The translations under genes and the position numbers were made by a program. Positions 12,107-64,000 of a stretch of 64,000 bases of DNA are shown in pieces. Below the pieces are notes generated by a model. The model was given only the letters and a program-made list of their open reading frames with translations, was not told the DNA's origin and searched no databases. Position 1 is the stretch's first letter, and each line of letters opens with the position of its first letter. Source of the DNA: Burkholderia catarinensis (GTDB taxonomy: Bacteria > Pseudomonadota > Gammaproteobacteria > Burkholderiales > Burkholderiaceae); NCBI RefSeq assembly GCF_001883705.2, contig NZ_MDEQ02000001.1:558001-622000 (forward strand), in the 5' to 3' direction.

Positions 12107-12787
12107 TCAGTCGAGCTTGTCGACGATCGCGTAGAGTTCGAAATCGGTCCGGATGCCCAGTTTCCGGTAGGCCGACTGCTTTTGCGTGCTGATGGTCTTC
12201 AGGCTGCGGCGGAACTTGGCCGCGATGTCGGACACGGACATGCCGGTCGCGATACAGCGCAGCACCTCGCGCTCGCGCAGCGTAAGGGTTTCCGGCGCCT
12301 GGCATGCGCAGGGCGTCCCGTTTTTCGCCGTGGCCGCAGGCGCGGCGCGATACACGGCCGCTTCGTCGTCGAGCAGGGTGTTGACGCGATGCGCGCCGCG
12401 CGCGACTTCGCGCACGACCGTCACGAGCCGCTCGAGCGGCTCCTCCTTGCCGACGAAGCCGCGTGCGCCCGCGTTCATCGCGAGTATGACCGTCGACAGC
12501 GTGTGGAAGGCCGACGACACGACGATCTTCACGGCGGGCATCTTGTTCTTCAGCAGCCGGATCAGGCTGATGCCGTCGATGTCGCCAGGGCGGAGCTGAT
12601 AGTCGGTGACGAGCACGTCGATGCGCATGGCGCGCGCGTTGAAGGCCGCGATCAGGTCGCTCGCCGACGCGTAGCGGCCGACGATCGCGATGTCGGGTTC
12701 GTCCTGCAGGCGCAGCGCGAGCCCGAACGTGACGATCGGGTGATCGTCGAGTAGCGCGACGGCAATCTTTGTGTGTGTTGTATTCAT
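12107..12787 (-). CDS. NarL/LuxR-type response regulator (BvgA/EvgA-like)
   Basis: A 226-residue two-domain regulator. The ATG at 12787 is preceded by AGGA. The receiver domain has the acidic pair (LLDDHP, residues 13-16), phosphoacceptor Asp62 (VLVTDYQL) and Lys near residue 112 (VGKEEP). The C-terminal LuxR helix-turn-helix occupies about residues 160-225 (LTLREREVLRCIATGMSVSDIA, then SLKTISTQKQSAYRKLGI). Between the domains is an unusual Ala/Cys-containing linker. It is cotranscribed with the hybrid kinase and is the obvious output of its phosphorelay; the adjacent pilus promoter is the best candidate target (inference). Confidence 0.92.
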   Translation of the reverse strand: MNTTHTKIAVALLDDHPIVTFGLALRLQDEPDIAIVGRYASASDLIAAFNARAMRIDVLVTDYQLRPGDIDGISLIRLLKNKMPAVKIVVSSAFHTLSTVILAMNAGARGFVGKEEPLERLVTVVREVARGAHRVNTLLDDEAAVYRAAPAATAKNGTPCACQAPETLTLREREVLRCIATGMSVSDIAAKFRRSLKTISTQKQSAYRKLGIRTDFELYAIVDKLD

Positions 12788-13007
12788 CGTTTTCCTGTTC
12801 CGTGTGTAATCCGGCCGGCCCGTTCCCGCGCGGGACGTGCAGCGGATGCTCGACGCAGGGGCGGCGTGGCGACCCGCCGGCGCATGCATCGCAAGGCACC
12901 GGGAACGATCGCGTGGAAGCTGGCGCGCGGACGGAATCGGAACGACGATGCCGATCGCAGCGGAAAACCTGGCTCACTCGTGGTCCGGGCCTGGAAAACC
13001 GGATGAC

Positions 13008-57946: not shown

Positions 57947-60076
57947 TCACGCGTCGAGCCTGACCAGCGCGTCGACGGCAACCGCACCGTGCTCCATCAC
58001 CAGCAACGGGTTGACGTCGAGTTCGACGAGCGTATCCGCATGCGCCTGCGCAAACCGCGCGATCGCCATTACGTTCGCGACCACGGCGTCGAGATCGGCC
58101 TTCGGCCGCCCGCGATAGCCGGTCAGCAGCGGCCCGAGCTTCAGCCCGAGCAGCGCGTCGCGCACGTCGCTTTCGCGCACGGGCAGCAGCAGCGTCGCGG
58201 TGTCGCGGATCAGTTCGACCAGCACGCCGCCGGTACCGAGCACGAGCGCCAGGCCGAAGTTCGGCTCGCGCTTCACGCCGACGATCAGTTCGAGCAACGG
58301 CGCGTCGGCCATTTTCTCGACGAGGATGCGCTCGATGCGCACGTCGGGCGCGTAACGCGCCACCTGCGCGGTCATCCGCTCGACCGCGTCGGCGACGGCT
58401 TCGGGCGACGGGAGCTTCAGCGCGACCGCACCGGCCTCGGTCTTGTGCGGCAGGCGGTCGCTGACCACTTTCACGCACACGGGGAAGCCGAGCCGTTGTG
58501 CGGCGGCCGGCGCGTCGGCGGGCGCGACGCATTCGGCCGGCGGCACCGCAAGCCCGTACGCGACCAGCATCCGCTTGCTGGCCCACTCGTCGTGCAGCGT
58601 CGCCGTGCCGTCGCCGCCCTGGCCGGCGCGCAACACGGGCAGCGCGCTCAGCGCATCGGCGTCGAGCACGCGGCGGCGCGTGTCGCCGTAGGCCATCGCC
58701 GCGCCGAGCGCGTCGATGCCGTCGGCGAGCCCCTGCAGCGGTGCGATGCCGGCCGCGGCCATGCGCGCCGCGTGATCAGGCGGCGTCAGGTCCGGAAACA
58801 CCGAGATCACCGCGCCGACCACGCCGTGCTGGCGCGCGGACGCGGCGAACGCGCTCGCCGCGATGTCGCACAGCGGCCGCTCGCCGGTCGCTTCCTGAGG
58901 GTAGTCGAGGATCATCGCGGCCGCGCCCGGGCGATCGGCGAGCAGCGCGTCGCAGCAGGTGCGCATTTTGTCGGGGTCGCCCCATGGCGTGGTCGTGAAG
59001 TCGAGCGGGTTCGCGATCGTCGCGTACGCGGGCAGCACCTTGCCGAGCGTATCGCGGCCCGCGTCGCCGACCGGCGGGAACGCGATGCCGCGCGCCTCGC
59101 CGAGGTCGGCGACGAGCCCCGCATCGCCGCCGGACGTCGCAAGCGCGGCGAGCGTGCGGCGCTCGGGCACGCCGGCGATCGCGAGCAGCTTCAGCGTCTC
59201 GACGAGGCCGACCGGGTCCTTCGCGCGGATCACGCCGAGCCGCCGGAACAGCGCGTCGTACAGCGCGTCCGAGCCCGCGAGCGAACTCGTGTGGCTCATC
59301 GCGAGCTGCGCGCCGAGCGTCGACGTGCCGCTCTTCAACGCGACGATCGGCACGCCGCGCGCGAGCGCGCGGGCGGCGGCCTCGCTGAACGCGCGCACGT
59401 CCTTCAACCCTTCGAGATGCACGCCGATCGCGCGGATGCGCGGATCGTCGACGAACGCGTCGACGAGGCGCGCGATGTCGACCGATGCCTGGTTGCCGAC
59501 GCTCGCGAGGTACGCGAACGGCACCGAGCGTGTGCTCATCGACAGGTTGTACGCAAGGTTGCCGCTCTGCGTGATCACGGCGACGCCCGATTCGACGCGC
59601 GGCGCGCCGTGCGCGACGGGCCACAGCGCGCTGCCGTTCAGGCCGTTGATGAGCCCGTAGCAGTTCGGTCCGAGCACGGCCATGTCGCCGGCCGCGTCGA
59701 CGAGCGCTTGCTGCAGCGCGGTGCCGCCGGCGCCGGTCTCGGAGAAGCCGGACGCATACACGATCGCGCCGCCCGCGCCGCGTTCGGCGAGCGCGCGCAC
59801 GACGTCGATCGCCTGTCGTGCCGGCACCGCGACGAACACGGCGTCGGGCGCGGCGGGCAGGTCGGCGACGCTCGCATGGCAGCGCACGCCGTCGATCTCG
59901 GCATGGTTCGGGTTGACGAGCCGGATGTCGCCGGCATAGCCGTAGTCGCGACAGCGCTGCACGGCGCCGGCGATGCCGCGTCCGCCGACGAACGCAATGC
60001 TGGCCGGTTCGAGCAGCCGGCGCAGGTTGGCCGCGGCGGCGGCACGGCGATCCCTGACTGCGGGAGAAGAAGTCAT
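57947..60076 (-). CDS. Acyl-CoA synthetase, ADP-forming (acetate-CoA ligase family)
   Basis: A 709-residue fused synthetase: CoA-binding domain (about 20-125; LLEPASIAFVGG, VRALAERGAGGAIVYASGF), succinyl-CoA-ligase-like domain with the phosphohistidine region (QLAMSHTSSLAGSDALYD) and a C-terminal ATP-grasp domain (about 490-700; KRMLVAYGLAVPPAECVA, CVKVVSDRLPHKTEAGAVAL, ELDVNPLLVM). It activates a carboxylic acid as its CoA thioester with ATP to ADP. It is the last gene of a leftward set with an acyl-CoA dehydrogenase and enoyl-CoA hydratase-like gene, so it presumably primes the acid they degrade. Confidence 0.9.
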   Translation of the reverse strand: MTSSPAVRDRRAAAAANLRRLLEPASIAFVGGRGIAGAVQRCRDYGYAGDIRLVNPNHAEIDGVRCHASVADLPAAPDAVFVAVPARQAIDVVRALAERGAGGAIVYASGFSETGAGGTALQQALVDAAGDMAVLGPNCYGLINGLNGSALWPVAHGAPRVESGVAVITQSGNLAYNLSMSTRSVPFAYLASVGNQASVDIARLVDAFVDDPRIRAIGVHLEGLKDVRAFSEAAARALARGVPIVALKSGTSTLGAQLAMSHTSSLAGSDALYDALFRRLGVIRAKDPVGLVETLKLLAIAGVPERRTLAALATSGGDAGLVADLGEARGIAFPPVGDAGRDTLGKVLPAYATIANPLDFTTTPWGDPDKMRTCCDALLADRPGAAAMILDYPQEATGERPLCDIAASAFAASARQHGVVGAVISVFPDLTPPDHAARMAAAGIAPLQGLADGIDALGAAMAYGDTRRRVLDADALSALPVLRAGQGGDGTATLHDEWASKRMLVAYGLAVPPAECVAPADAPAAAQRLGFPVCVKVVSDRLPHKTEAGAVALKLPSPEAVADAVERMTAQVARYAPDVRIERILVEKMADAPLLELIVGVKREPNFGLALVLGTGGVLVELIRDTATLLLPVRESDVRDALLGLKLGPLLTGYRGRPKADLDAVVANVMAIARFAQAHADTLVELDVNPLLVMEHGAVAVDALVRLDA

Positions 60077-60127
60077 GACAGGTCCTTTCGGAAGTCGCGC
60101 ACGGCCGTGCCGGCGCGACGGTTCGCG

Positions 60128-61285
60128 TCAGCTGTAGCGTCGAAGGATTTCCTTGGACAGGATGTGCCGCTGGATCTCGGACGTGCCTTCCCAGATGCGC
60201 TCGATGCGCGCATCGCGCCAGAAGCGCTCGATCGGCAGTTCGTCCATCAGCCCCATGCCGCCGTAGATCTGCACCGCATGATCGGTCACGTGGCCGAGCG
60301 TTTCGGTCGCGAGCAGCTTCGCGAGCGCGGCATCGCCGTCGGTCATCGTGCCCAGGTCGAGCTTCTGCGCGGTGTAGAGCGTGACGAGTTCCGCCGCGCG
60401 AATCTCGGTCTGCATGTCGGCGAGCTTGAACGACGTGCCCTGGAATTCGCCGATGCGCTTGCCGAACTGCTGGCGCGTTGCCGCCCATTCGGCGGCCATC
60501 TCGAACGCGCGCTGCGCGCGGCCGATGTTGTTCGCCGCGACCATCACGCGGCCGGCCGTCAGCCAGTCGTTCGCGAGCTCGAAGCCGCGATGTTCTTCGC
60601 CGAGGATCTGCGCGGCGCTGACGCGGCAGTCGGTCAGGAAGATCTCCGACTGGTGGTAGCCGCGCAGGCTCGTGCAGTGCGGGCCCGGGCGCACGGTCAT
60701 TCCCGGCGTGTCCTTGTCGATCAGGAAGCAGGTCACGCGCTTGCGCTTCTGGCCGCGCACCTCCTCCTCGCCGGTGACGGCGAACAGGATCACGAAATCG
60801 GCCGTATCCGCGTGACTGATGAAGTGCTTGCTGCCGTTGATCACGTAGTCGTCGCCGTCGCGTACCGCGCGCGTGCGGATGCCCATCGCGTCGGAGCCGG
60901 CGCCCGGCTCGGTCAGCGCGAAGCAGTCGACGCGCTCGCCGCGCACGGCCGGCCTCAGGTAGCGCTCGACCTGGTCGCCCTTGCATGCCATCAGGATCTT
61001 GCTCGGCCGCGCGACGAACACGTGCAGCGCCCAGCTCGTGCGGCCGAGCTCGCGCTCGACGAGCGCCTGTGTCACGTAGTCGAGGCCCGGGCCGCCGGCG
61101 CTCTCGGGCATGTTGAACGCGTAGAAGCCGAGCTCGATCGACTTGCGGCGGATCGAATCGGCGAGCTCGGGCGGCACGTCGTCCGCGCGGTCGACCGCGA
61201 ATTCATGAGGCTGCAGTTCCTTCTCGACGAACTGACGCAGCGACGTCACCAGCATTTCCTGCTCTTGGGTCAGCGAAAAATCCAT
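60128..61285 (-). CDS. Acyl-CoA dehydrogenase
   Basis: A 385-residue FAD enzyme. Motifs: CFALTEPGAGSDAMGIRTRA (substrate/FAD loop), GRVMVAANNIGRAQRAFEMA, and VQIYGGMGLMDELPIERFWR with the catalytic Glu in WEGTSEIQRHI. It introduces the alpha-beta double bond into an acyl-CoA. It lies between the enoyl-CoA hydratase-like gene (3 bases) and the acyl-CoA synthetase gene (51 bases). Confidence 0.94.
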   Translation of the reverse strand: MDFSLTQEQEMLVTSLRQFVEKELQPHEFAVDRADDVPPELADSIRRKSIELGFYAFNMPESAGGPGLDYVTQALVERELGRTSWALHVFVARPSKILMACKGDQVERYLRPAVRGERVDCFALTEPGAGSDAMGIRTRAVRDGDDYVINGSKHFISHADTADFVILFAVTGEEEVRGQKRKRVTCFLIDKDTPGMTVRPGPHCTSLRGYHQSEIFLTDCRVSAAQILGEEHRGFELANDWLTAGRVMVAANNIGRAQRAFEMAAEWAATRQQFGKRIGEFQGTSFKLADMQTEIRAAELVTLYTAQKLDLGTMTDGDAALAKLLATETLGHVTDHAVQIYGGMGLMDELPIERFWRDARIERIWEGTSEIQRHILSKEILRRYS

Positions 61286-61288
61286 CAG

Positions 61289-62077
61289 TCATCTCCCGAC
61301 AAAATGAGGTGCGCGACCTTCGACCGACGCGCGAAGCGCTTCCTGGCCGTCCTCGCTGTGGCCGCAAGCGACGCCGGCTGCCAGCTCGCCGCGCAACTGC
61401 TCGGCGAGGGTGTGCGTGAGCGACTGCGCGAGCAGCGCCTTGGTATGGCCGAACGCGACGCTCGGCCCCTGCGCGAGACGCGCGGCAAACGCGGCGACGT
61501 GCTCCGCGAACGCATCGGCATCGACAACTTCGGACACGAGCCCGGCCGCGAGCGCGTCCTGCGCATTCCAGCGTTCGTTCAGGAAGATGAAGCGGCGTGC
61601 GACGTCGGGCCGCGCGATGCGCGGCAGGAACCAGCTTCCGCCCATGTCGGGGCTGTAGCCCATGCCCGTATACCCGCAGCGCAGCGTCGCGGCCGTGCTC
61701 GCGATACGGAAGTCGCATGCAAAGCCGATGTCGGTGCCCGCGCCGACCGTCGAGCCGTTCAGCGCGGCGACGGTGGGGCGCGGAAACGCGGCGAGCGCCT
61801 GCACGAAGCGGTGCGCGCGCTCGGTCCACCCGTAGGTGTCGAGTTCGCCGTTGCGTTCGGCCTCGGCCCATTCGTCGACGTCCGCGCCCGCGCAGAACGC
61901 GCTGCCCGTGCCGGTCAGCACGAGGCAGCGCACGGCCGGGTCGTTCGCGAGCGCGTCGAGCGTGTCGCGAAGAAAGTCGAGATGCGGCCGCGCGAGCGAA
62001 TTGCGCTTCGCCGGGCGGTTCAGGTGAAGCGTCACGACGCCGTCGTGACGTTCGATTCGGATGTCCTCGATGCTCAT
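61289..62077 (-). CDS. Enoyl-CoA hydratase/isomerase family protein
   Basis: A 262-residue crotonase. Oxyanion-hole segments are SAFCAGADVDEW and NGSTVGAGTDIGFACDFRIA. The two Glu of true enoyl-CoA hydratases (motifs GGGCELA and PEILLG) are replaced: GAGTDIG and the loop YTGMGYSPDMGGSWFLPR. The PDMGG motif is like PaaG-type isomerases and dehalogenases, so isomerisation, not hydration, may be the chemistry. The ATG at 62077 is chosen; a GTG three codons earlier has a poorly spaced AAGGAG. It heads the leftward operon. Confidence 0.88.
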   Translation of the reverse strand: MSIEDIRIERHDGVVTLHLNRPAKRNSLARPHLDFLRDTLDALANDPAVRCLVLTGTGSAFCAGADVDEWAEAERNGELDTYGWTERAHRFVQALAAFPRPTVAALNGSTVGAGTDIGFACDFRIASTAATLRCGYTGMGYSPDMGGSWFLPRIARPDVARRFIFLNERWNAQDALAAGLVSEVVDADAFAEHVAAFAARLAQGPSVAFGHTKALLAQSLTHTLAEQLRGELAAGVACGHSEDGQEALRASVEGRAPHFVGR

Positions 62078-62176
62078 GCTGATCACTGTCTCCTTGGTGT
62101 TGGGTTTCGTGTTGTGTCAGAGCCGGCAAGGGTCGCCGCTACTTGCGGACCGCATTTCGGCATAGTATAAGTTCTG

Positions 62177-62192
62177 TTAAATGAACGTTCAA
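62177..62192. promoter_or_regulatory. 16-bp palindromic operator-like site 3
   Basis: On the minus strand TTGAACGTTCATTTAA, 14 of 16 identical with site 2. It lies in the divergent gap between the enoyl-CoA hydratase-like gene and the ABC transporter gene, 31 bases before the ATPase start, so one regulator could control both directions. Confidence 0.6.
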
Positions 62193-62222
62193 CCCAATTG
62201 TGAGTCGACCAGGAGACACACG

Positions 62223-63389
62223 ATGAGTGCGGTGATGGAGACGTCGGCAGGTGTGGAGGAGGGCAGGCCCGGTGCGCACGCGGCGCGCGCGGAGCCGGCG
62301 GGGCGCATCGCGAGCGGTGCCGGCCTGCAGATCGATCGCGTGTCGAAGTGCTACGGCAGCGTGCACGCGTTGCGGGAAACGACGATCGACATTCCGCGCG
62401 GCGAGTTCCTGACGATCCTCGGGCCGTCGGGCTCCGGCAAGACGACGCTGCTGACGATCGTCGCGGGCTTCGAGCATCCGACCACCGGCGACCTGCGCGT
62501 CGGCGGCCGCAGCATCGTCGCGTTGCCGCCCGAGAAGCGCAACTTCGGGATGGTGTTCCAGGGCTATGCGCTGTTTCCGCACATGACGGTCGAGCAGAAC
62601 GTCGCGTACCCGCTGATGGTGCGCAAGCAGAAGGGGCCCGACGCGGTGAAGCGCGTGAAGGCCGCACTCGATCTCGTGCGGCTCGGCCCTCTCGCCGATC
62701 GCTTGCCGCGCCAGTTGTCGGGCGGCCAGCAGCAGCGCGTCGCGATCGCGCGCGCGCTGGTGTTCGATCCCGATCTCGTGCTGCTCGACGAACCGCTCGG
62801 CGCGCTCGACCGCAAGCTGCGCGGTGAGGTTCAGGTCGAACTGAAGGCGCTGCACGAACGGCTCGGCGCGACTTTCCTGTTCGTCACGCACGATCAGGAG
62901 GAGGCATTGTCGATGTCGGACCGGATCGCGATCATGCGCGACGGCCGGCTCGAACAGATCGGCACGCCCGACGGGCTGTACGAACAGCCGGCGAACCGCT
63001 TCGTTGCGGATTTCCTCGGCAAGAGCAATTTCATCGAAGGCGTCGCGCTCGGCGGCGATACCGCGGCGACGCACTACCGCGTCGGCGCTGCGCGCTTCGT
63101 CGCACCCGCGTGCGGCGCGCGGCCGGACGACCCGCTGCTGTTCGCGCTGCGGCCGGAAAAGGTCGCCGTCTCGGCGGCATCGTGTGGCGGCGCGCACAAC
63201 GAAGTGGCCGGCCGGATTCGCCACTGGAGCTATTTCGGTTCGTCGTACCGCTTCGAGATCGAGACCGCTGCGCTCGGCTGCGTGACCGCCGACGTGCCCG
63301 CATGGCGCGGACTCGCGTCGCCGCGCACCGGCATGGACGTGTTCGTGCAGTGGGAGCGCGACGCGACGTGCCGGATCACGCCGGACTGA
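62223..63389 (+). CDS. ABC transporter ATPase, PotA (spermidine/putrescine) type
   Basis: A 388-residue ATPase. Walker A GPSGSGKTTLL, Q loop MVFQGYALFPHM, signature LSGGQQQRVAIARAL, Walker B VLLDEPLGALD, H loop VTHDQEEALSMSD, and a C-terminal regulatory TOBE domain. It would power import of a polyamine-like or other cationic solute. An N-terminal extension of about 45 Ala/Gly/Arg residues precedes the ATPase fold, unusual for PotA. AGGAG precedes the ATG. A 289-bp nested palindrome separates it from the substrate-binding-protein gene. Confidence 0.92.
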   Translation: MSAVMETSAGVEEGRPGAHAARAEPAGRIASGAGLQIDRVSKCYGSVHALRETTIDIPRGEFLTILGPSGSGKTTLLTIVAGFEHPTTGDLRVGGRSIVALPPEKRNFGMVFQGYALFPHMTVEQNVAYPLMVRKQKGPDAVKRVKAALDLVRLGPLADRLPRQLSGGQQQRVAIARALVFDPDLVLLDEPLGALDRKLRGEVQVELKALHERLGATFLFVTHDQEEALSMSDRIAIMRDGRLEQIGTPDGLYEQPANRFVADFLGKSNFIEGVALGGDTAATHYRVGAARFVAPACGARPDDPLLFALRPEKVAVSAASCGGAHNEVAGRIRHWSYFGSSYRFEIETAALGCVTADVPAWRGLASPRTGMDVFVQWERDATCRITPD

Positions 63390-63486
63390 CGCGCAGACCG
63401 ATCCATCCCGCGCGAGGCGGCGAGTGCCGTCGTCGCCGGACGATTCACCGGCCCCGGAAACGACGAGACGCGTGCGGGAGCCGCCG

Positions 63487-63775
63487 AGGGCCTGTTCACG
63501 CTAATAACGGGCTTGCGCTGGCCCCCAGAAGGGCCGAGCGCAAGGAATGCGACGAAGCGAATACTCGACGTATTCGCGAGGAGTATGACGCGGCGATCGG
63601 CCCTTCTGGGGGCCAGCCCCACGAATGATTTTTTCCAAACAGGGGAACGTGCCTTGCCGGCCGCATTGCGGCGTCGCGCGTCGCTTGTTTGGCTCGGCCA
63701 AACGGCGCTCCGTGCTCCTTGCACTACGACCGGCAAGGCACGTTCGCAAGCCCGTTATTAGCGTGAACAGGCCCT
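63487..63775. repeat. 289-bp nested palindromic element
   Basis: Outer arms of 31 bp (63487-63517 and 63745-63775) are perfect inverted repeats. Directly inside the left arm is a perfect 20-bp inverted repeat (63518-63537 with 63597-63616) containing a third hairpin (GCGAATAC at 63557-63564 with 63570-63577). Then CCCC (63617-63620) can pair with GGGG (63642-63645). Directly inside the right arm is a perfect 15-bp inverted repeat (63646-63660 with 63730-63744) containing GTTTGGC/GCCAAAC (63688-63694 with 63698-63704). Stems adjoin with no gap, giving a multi-armed junction in RNA or extruded DNA. It lies between the ABC ATPase gene and the substrate-binding gene. No gene is supported within. 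Confidence 0.9.
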
Positions 63776-63792
63776 AGCCTGGAGGAGACACC

Positions 63793-64000
63793 ATGACGAA
63801 CCGCTATCTGCAGGACCTGCTCGATCAAGCACGCGACCTTCAACCTGCGACGTCGCAGCGCCGCCGGGATTTCCTCCGGCTGTGCGCGGCCGCAGGCATC
63901 GCGCCGACGCTGCTGTCGCTGGGCGCGAAGGATGTGCTGGCCGCGAACCCGAAGGAAATCGTGCTGAGCGCGTGGGGCGGCGAGGCACGTTCGGCGTTCC
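63793..64000 (+). CDS. ABC transporter substrate-binding protein (5' part)
   Basis: An open frame beginning at the ATG at 63793 with GGAGGAG 5-6 bases upstream, running off the right edge (69 codons visible). The N-terminus has a Tat-like twin-arginine signal (SQRRRDFLRLCAAAGIAPTL then LLSLGAKDVLA), followed by NPKEIVLSAWGGEARSAF, the start of a PotD-type periplasmic binding protein. Its position after the PotA-like ATPase supports this. Confidence 0.85.
   Translation, partial: MTNRYLQDLLDQARDLQPATSQRRRDFLRLCAAAGIAPTLLSLGAKDVLAANPKEIVLSAWGGEARSAF

What the first reader, a model, noticed from the sequence alone, without database searches (positions are those of the whole stretch)
63487..63775. 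Nested 289-bp palindrome with perfectly matched arms splitting an ABC operon
Read directly: a perfect 31-bp outer inverted repeat encloses two perfect inner inverted repeats (20 and 15 bp) that abut it with no spacer, each with a further internal hairpin, plus a CCCC/GGGG pair between. That arm arrangement predicts a four-way-like junction in single-stranded DNA or RNA. Perfect matching over 66 bp of stems means it is recent or under selection. It sits between the ABC ATPase gene and the binding-protein gene, where a non-autonomous transposon (MITE), a phage or plasmid-derived origin, a structured RNA, or a transcription/termination switch are all possible. No transposase is present, and no obvious target duplication was seen.
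Basis: seen in the sequence. Interest (0 to 1): 0.85.

Follow-up and report, generated by a model that had tools for sequence, protein, structure and literature searches.

The report
Burkholderia jumping palindrome with self-matching arms
This 287-base palindrome is one copy of a small mobile DNA element spread through Burkholderia and related bacteria, and its paired arms keep matching each other even as their letters change, most simply because the cell's DNA copying or repair corrects one arm from the other.

Summary
The palindrome is real (RNA fold z -15.9). It is a non-autonomous mobile element (MITE), not a one-off. The host genome has 20 places, 16 near full length; 56 of 61 genus genomes and 9 of 25 family genera hold it. 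All 17 relatives with the same ABC locus have an empty site. The ends, TA|GGGYCTGTTYAC...GTRAACAGRCCC|TA in Y-TA-R targets, are shared with a complete 824-bp IS5-family insertion sequence in a relative; the interior is not.

The unusual part is arm upkeep. Across five diverged subfamilies the stems are 94.5% paired, with both-side changes at 65 of 104 pairs. At shared insertion sites stems vary less than unpaired positions, and some changes are compensated. G-U does not exceed A-C among mismatches (nearly equal), so upkeep looks DNA-level rather than RNA selection. Template-switch correction fits best but is inferred; exchange between copies and selection on mobile copies are not excluded. At two of 18 strict shared sites the interior is inverted between species. 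Arm-tip sequences are conserved and unexplained.

The parts
63488..63774 (+). the mobile element (287 bp, subfamily A), oriented arm 1 then arm 2
   Evidence: end definition from 208 copies; empty at 17 of 17 orthologous loci
63486..63487 (.). left target copy, expected TA, here GA
   Evidence: TA/TA in 125 of 208 copies
63775..63776 (.). right target copy, TA
63488..63516 (+). left outer stem / terminal inverted repeat (29 bp); about the first 13 bp are shared with the IS5-family IS
   Evidence: (helix 1)
63746..63774 (-). right outer stem / terminal inverted repeat
   Evidence: helix 1
63517..63617 (+). arm 1: basal stem of about 20 bp with inner hairpin GCGAATAC..GTATTCGC at 63557-63577
   Evidence: helices 2-4
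63618..63644 (.). linker CCCC..GGG with a T run; variable between subfamilies, shorter in subfamily C
63645..63745 (+). arm 2: basal stem of about 16 bp with inner hairpin GTTTGGC..GCCAAAC at 63687-63703
   Evidence: helices 5-8
62223..63389 (+). upstream gene: ABC transporter ATPase (start codon chosen by me; the mechanical ORF begins at 62181)
63793..64000 (+). downstream gene (start): solute-binding protein; a GGAGGAG motif lies between the element and its ATG
   Evidence: protein read from L001, which runs past the window

Best explanation
The palindrome is a copy of a MITE family of Burkholderiaceae. Shown: it is dispersed; it carries IS5-family ends; it sits at Y-TA-R targets with TA on both sides; it is absent from the same site in relatives. 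Inferred: an IS5-family transposase moves it in trans by recognising the GGGYCTGTTYAC ends. Shown: the outer stem and both basal arm stems change letters in pairs, in subfamilies that differ widely in sequence, and stems at shared insertion sites vary less than unpaired positions. Inferred: this happens at the DNA level, mainly because the long palindrome folds when single-stranded in replication and the polymerase copies one arm from the other (quasipalindrome template switching), so that a mutation in one arm is either erased or copied into the other. Exchange between copies in one genome also takes part. In this operon the element inserted between the ATPase gene and the binding-protein gene and left the latter's ribosome-binding motif intact; any effect on expression is unknown.
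For: MITE: copies in the own genome, genus and family; 17 of 17 empty orthologous sites; TA/TA in 125 of 208 copies and Y-TA-R flanks; in 8 of 15 loci with the related transposase the same left end was found, and in 2 (L108, L117) both ends, 826 and 824 bp apart; that transposase hits NF033580 IS5 family at 287.5 bits against a cut-off of 110, plus DUF4096 and DDE_Tnp_1; 14 of 160 sites lie inside coding-looking ORFs against 103 of 160 at control points 300 bp away. Arms: covariation score 0.355 against 0.117 in shuffles and at most 0.061 when partners are slid. Over 23 same-site groups 227 of 2437 pairs vary (49 compensated) while 193 of 1545 unpaired columns vary; in 18 strict groups 136 of 1928 pairs (19 compensated) against 109 of 1205. 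One-sided mismatches: G-U 101, A-C 121; in the larger set of 186 copies 181 and 255; in the sense of the gene running into the element 122 and 110. Compensated in-situ changes are 25 transitions to 23 transversions, against 111 to 72 at unpaired columns, so no sign of a G-U intermediate.
Against: 26 of 46 copies at strict shared sites have their nearest relative at another site, so some compensated changes may come from other copies rather than the opposite arm. In the 8 groups that I judged cleanest, only 3 of 25 variable pairs are compensated. Compensated states are a larger share of shared changes than of changes private to one copy (subfamily A 30 of 68 against 18 of 123, B 11 of 19 against 15 of 58, C 8 of 16 against 12 of 27): new mutations are mostly one-sided, so correction is slow, or selection on mobile copies contributes. 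Arm interiors are almost never inverted (189 of 192 scored copies normal), although template switching also predicts loop inversion. Conserved arm tips are not explained by arm correction. No intact IS with exactly these ends was seen in the host genome, only a decayed one.
Confidence: 0.7

Rival explanations
1. The stems are kept by selection on an RNA made from the element (mRNA stabiliser, RNase III site, terminator or small RNA).
For: Very stable fold; strong covariation; at 41 of 160 sites the target lies in the stop codon of a coding-looking ORF, i.e. where transcripts may run on.
Against: G-U is not preferred over A-C on the element strand (101 against 121; 181 against 255), in situ (58 against 53) or clearly in transcribed sense (122 against 110); no Rfam family reached its gathering score; the only terminator-like match is inside arm 2 and close to chance (1 found, shuffles 0.4).
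Confidence: 0.1
2. The folded single-stranded or cruciform DNA is itself needed for moving, so selection acts on the copies that transpose and paired stems are inherited from such masters.
For: Architecture and arm-tip sequences are conserved in five subfamilies; the outer stem, which holds the ends, covaries most (25 of 29 pairs); compensated changes are a larger share of shared than of private changes.
Against: Stems at shared sites still vary less than unpaired positions after insertion, when transposition no longer selects; IS5-family transposases are DDE enzymes acting on double-stranded ends (recalled, no call).
Confidence: 0.18
3. Concerted evolution between copies in one genome (gene conversion) alone produces the paired changes.
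For: Same-site copies are often closer to other copies of their own genome, e.g. L165/L231 in G039 and L170/L233 in G020 (genomes).
Against: Conversion spreads an existing pair but does not make the second change; the G-C state at pair 167/247 in the L028 group occurs in no other copy of that subfamily alignment.
Confidence: 0.15
4. It is a structured RNA gene or switch of this ABC operon alone.
For: Position just before the ribosome-binding motif of the binding-protein gene.
Against: 17 of 17 relatives lack it at this locus while 56 of 61 genus genomes hold matches.
Confidence: 0.02

Closest known systems
Correia repeat enclosed elements (Neisseria)
   Same: Short dispersed MITE with terminal inverted repeats, near genes; inversion in place has been reported (passages of the review PMC10969869). 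A TA target for Correia elements is recalled, not from a call.
   Different: Letters and hosts differ; here two long hairpin arms sit inside the outer stem and the stems covary across subfamilies. Promoters and IHF sites reported for Correia: 0 sigma-70-like promoters found in 63300-63900; IHF not tested.
IS5 family insertion sequences (IS427 group by recall)
   Same: Same ends GGGYCTGTTYAC and TA outside; a complete copy in L117.
   Different: The MITE shares only about 13-15 terminal bases; no significant interior match (best 17 bases, E 0.57); no transposase.
Quasipalindrome template-switch correction (PMC8794818, passages read; PMC8604942, search listing only)
   Same: Predicts arm homogenisation, one-step compensated changes, and loop or spacer inversion.
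   Different: Described there for RNA genes and for yeast coding DNA; here proposed for a bacterial mobile element at many loci.
REP / REPIN / BIME palindromes
   Same: Small extragenic palindromes in many copies (search listings).
   Different: Much longer; IS5-type ends and a TA target. REP-associated (RAYT) transposases were not tested for here.

Membership tests
MITE | short, multi-copy, dispersed, without a transposase | tested here: met
MITE | terminal inverted repeats | tested here: met
   208 of 214 loci passed the both-ends and length test
MITE | target site duplication and empty sites | tested here: met
   TA/TA in at least one copy at 105 of 160 sites; 17 of 17 empty at the window locus. 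In the window copy itself the left TA reads GA.
MITE | ends shared with an autonomous element | tested here: met
MITE | shown to transpose with that transposase | not testable with these tools
   needs an experiment
MITE derived by internal deletion of this IS | interior homologous to the IS interior | tested here: not met
   best interior match 17 bases, E 0.57 (one IS copy against 208 elements)
Structured RNA family (Rfam) | match at the gathering score | tested here: not met
   window 60000-64000
RNA under structural selection | G-U tolerated above A-C | tested here: not met
   122 against 110 in transcribed sense
Template-switch corrected palindrome | compensated changes in place and reduced stem divergence | tested here: met
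   donors elsewhere in the genome not excluded
Template-switch corrected palindrome | inverted loops or spacers | tested here: inconclusive
   whole interior inverted at 2 of 18 strict sites; arm interiors not (189 of 192 normal)

The most novel reading that the evidence does not exclude
The element is an evolving DNA structure: stems are free to change letters because replication keeps copying one arm onto the other, while conserved sequences at the arm tips are displayed on a cruciform or single strand to a protein (a transposase or a replication or nucleoid factor), so that the fold itself is the functional unit of a mobile element, and the interior flips in place as a by-product.
Probability: 0.2. 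Interest if true: 0.75.

Novelty: new variant of a known kind. Interest (0 to 1): 0.5.

Why it matters
Paired changes in a stem are usually read as strong evidence of a functional RNA. Here a mobile DNA repeat shows strong pairing and covariation with no sign of RNA-strand preference, so covariation alone would mislead an RNA search in these genomes. The same-site copies in related species also make arm homogenisation and interior flipping countable in nature.

Tried and rejected
Phage origin: no match in phage records. Known RNA family: none at gathering score. Known report: searches for Burkholderia + MITE, Burkholderia + intergenic repeat/palindromic, IS427, the end sequences as letters (the one hit is a Drosophila paper), B. 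cenocepacia non-coding RNA, MITE + compensatory, Correia + compensatory and MITE + template switching gave no listing that I recognised as this element. Listings were capped (10 to 20 rows) and only held open-access papers were searched. Beyond listings I saw passages of PMC2267715, PMC8794818 and PMC10969869, and a find in PMC3733652 with no hit for Burkholderia, Ralstonia or Cupriavidus.

Annotated plasmid records gave little: four of the five list no genes in the stretch; in L104 the element lies between a RuBisCO-like and an SMP-30 gene. Four same-site inversions found by flanks fell to two under exact insertion-point rules: L032/L223 differ by several bases in insertion point, and L246/L273 did not pass. 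The first in-situ count uses looser groups, hence the strict recount. The tool-made covariation count used 64 copies of the 208; one listed copy (L154, shortened) was left out.

Full report
Observation. The sequence at 63487-63775 is as described: a perfect 31-bp outer inverted repeat, two inner hairpin arms abutting it, and a CCCC...GGGG linker. The predicted RNA fold is -202.6 kcal/mol, z -15.9 against 200 shuffles. No Rfam family reached its gathering score in 60000-64000. The element lies between an ABC ATPase gene and a solute-binding-protein gene; 18 bases separate it from the latter's ATG, with a GGAGGAG motif among them.

It is a dispersed element. In the host genome the probe finds 20 separate places that became loci (L001-L020). 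16 of the 20 are near full length with both ends; the other four are deleted copies or remnants. Of 61 genus genomes 56 match with this copy and 57 with a second subfamily; of 200 family genomes 55 match, in 9 of 25 genera. Named records include Burkholderia, Caballeronia, Paraburkholderia and Cupriavidus and Trinickia. Phage records gave none.

Empty sites. A search with the flanking ATPase DNA gave 18 clear orthologous loci in 61 genomes (other matches were weak, as expected for ABC ATPases). The own genome is filled; 17 of 17 relatives are empty.

Ends, target and parent. I took 214 loci; 208 passed the test for both ends and length, six were dropped (L016, L017, L018, L020, L141, L147). 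The ends are TA|GGGYCTGTTYAC and its reverse. TA stands on both sides in 125 of 208 copies, mostly with C or T before it and G or A after it. By site, 105 of 160 have TA/TA in at least one copy. The window copy reads GA on the left. A pattern search for the end in the own genome led to a decayed IS5-like gene at G000:C1:639677, about 17.7 kb beyond the window. Its relatives occur in 11 of 61 genomes, the own genome included. Of 15 loci examined, 8 have the same left end and 2, both in G006, have both ends, 826 and 824 bp apart, with TA outside. The 251-aa product matches DUF4096, DDE_Tnp_1 and NCBIfam NF033580, IS5 family. IS and MITE share the terminal bases only; the best interior match is 17 bases, E 0.57. 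The own genome has 19 matches to the IS5 model; in a motif scan of those loci only the decayed gene shows these ends exactly, and one other place (L291/L296) shows the near variant GGGACTGTTTAC. Trans-mobilisation by such an IS is therefore inferred, and may now depend on an IS that this strain lacks.

Where it inserts. A reading-frame test on 160 sites, with flanks joined, puts 14 inside coding-looking ORFs against 103 at control points 300 bp away. At 41 sites the TA plus the element's first G is the stop codon of such an ORF. Insertion into a stop codon re-creates a stop and may be tolerated for that reason. The ORF test is crude (GC3-based).

Structure across subfamilies. I aligned 64 copies, one per site, from five subfamilies. 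94.5% of 6613 cells pair, against 80.8% in shuffles and at most 40.1% when partners are slid. 65 of 104 pairs have changes on both sides; in the outer stem 25 of 29. The structure was taken from L001, which favours pairing. The inner hairpin tips differ: their letters are largely conserved (helices 4 and 8; conserved columns).

Is it RNA? Against subfamily consensus, in 105 copies of four subfamilies, 286 pair cells changed on both sides into another Watson-Crick pair and 34 on both sides without pairing; one-sided changes were 101 G-U, 121 A-C and 137 other. In the larger A and B sets (186 copies) one-sided G-U and A-C were 181 and 255. A fold kept as RNA should tolerate G-U over A-C. Read in the sense of the gene that runs into the element (103 of 186 copies with a single direction called) the counts are 122 and 110. 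No RNA preference is seen; a weak effect cannot be excluded.

After insertion. Flank comparison gave 24 groups of copies at a shared site (68 copies). In the 23 that could be scored, 193 of 1545 unpaired columns vary (0.125). Of 2437 pairs 227 vary (0.093), where 0.234 would be expected if stem positions varied like unpaired ones; 49 are fully compensated, the 178 others include G-U 58 and A-C 53 states. Exact insertion-point rules leave 18 sites: 109 of 1205 unpaired columns, 136 of 1928 pairs, 19 compensated, G-U 39 and A-C 41. In 8 groups that I chose because their members are mostly each other's nearest relatives (three with a member left out), the figures are 28 of 526, 25 of 879, 3 compensated, G-U 3 and A-C 11. 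In one of these, the G-C state at pair 167/247 is seen in no other copy of that alignment. Compensated in-situ changes are 25 transitions and 23 transversions, unpaired ones 111 and 72, which is not what passage through G-U would give. In the passages of PMC8794818 that I saw, template switching is proposed as a source of one-step pair changes.

Cautions. 26 of the 46 copies at strict sites, in 14 of the 18 groups, are closest to a copy at another site: exchange between copies, or repeated insertion, contributes. Also, compensated states make up a larger share of changes found in several copies than of changes found in one (A 30 of 68 against 18 of 123; B 11 of 19 against 15 of 58; C 8 of 16 against 12 of 27). 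So correction is slow, or selection on copies that move contributes. On checking I had left this out; adding it, I lowered the best explanation from 0.72 to 0.70 and raised the moving-copy rival from 0.15 to 0.18. I cannot give the share of true arm-to-arm copying.

Flipping. At two strict sites the interior lies in opposite orientation in different species: L189/L191, whose interiors are 99% alike, and L028/L036/L212 against L217, which share the uncommon end GGGGCTG (9 of 208 copies; 5 of them at this site by the looser grouping). Flanks are 93-97% identical over about 600 bp on each side. Recombination between the 29-31-bp outer repeats or template switching could do this. Arm interiors are in the normal direction in 189 of 192 copies scored, which rather favours recombination for the flip. 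Inversion of Correia elements is reported in the review PMC10969869 (passages), so the flip alone is not new in kind.

Conclusion. The element is a MITE family with IS5-type ends, which I did not find described in the searches listed. It differs from usual MITEs in its two-armed nested palindrome and in the maintained pairing of stems that change letters. Mobility and family are well supported; DNA-level arm upkeep is supported; template switching as its cause is inferred; the role of the conserved arm tips and any effect on the ABC operon remain open.

Noticed in passing
L003, L006, L019, L138, L154 (arms); eight places in G000: A second small hairpin (CCCCGAAGGAAGTCCCCTTGGGG or close) is inserted at different points in the arms of different copies, and occurs with up to 2 mismatches at 8 places in the own genome, 3 of them inside elements. 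L149 and L151 share a site and differ only by a 27-base gap.
   Followed up: partly
160 insertion sites: At 41 of 160 sites the target TA plus the element's first G forms the stop codon of a coding-looking ORF.
   Followed up: partly
target bases beside the element, 196 copies with A| and |T intact: The outer target base often departs from TA symmetrically: of 30 copies changed on both sides, 22 are complementary; one per site, 13 of 18. The pairing upkeep may reach into the host target, or some ends are a base longer than I assumed.
   Followed up: partly
L005, L006, L160, L223: Some copies carry a different arm-2 tip hairpin (CAATAGC..GCTATTG) in place of GTTTGGC..GCCAAAC, as if tips were exchanged as modules.
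   Followed up: no
L020, L018, L154: Remnants: a 38-base left end, a 161-bp deleted copy, and a 244-bp copy whose shortened arm 1 looks reversed.
   Followed up: no
L291/L296 (G000:C47 near 12463-12854): An interrupted IS5-type gene near a variant end GGGACTGTTTAC; possibly another relative of the parent IS.
   Followed up: no
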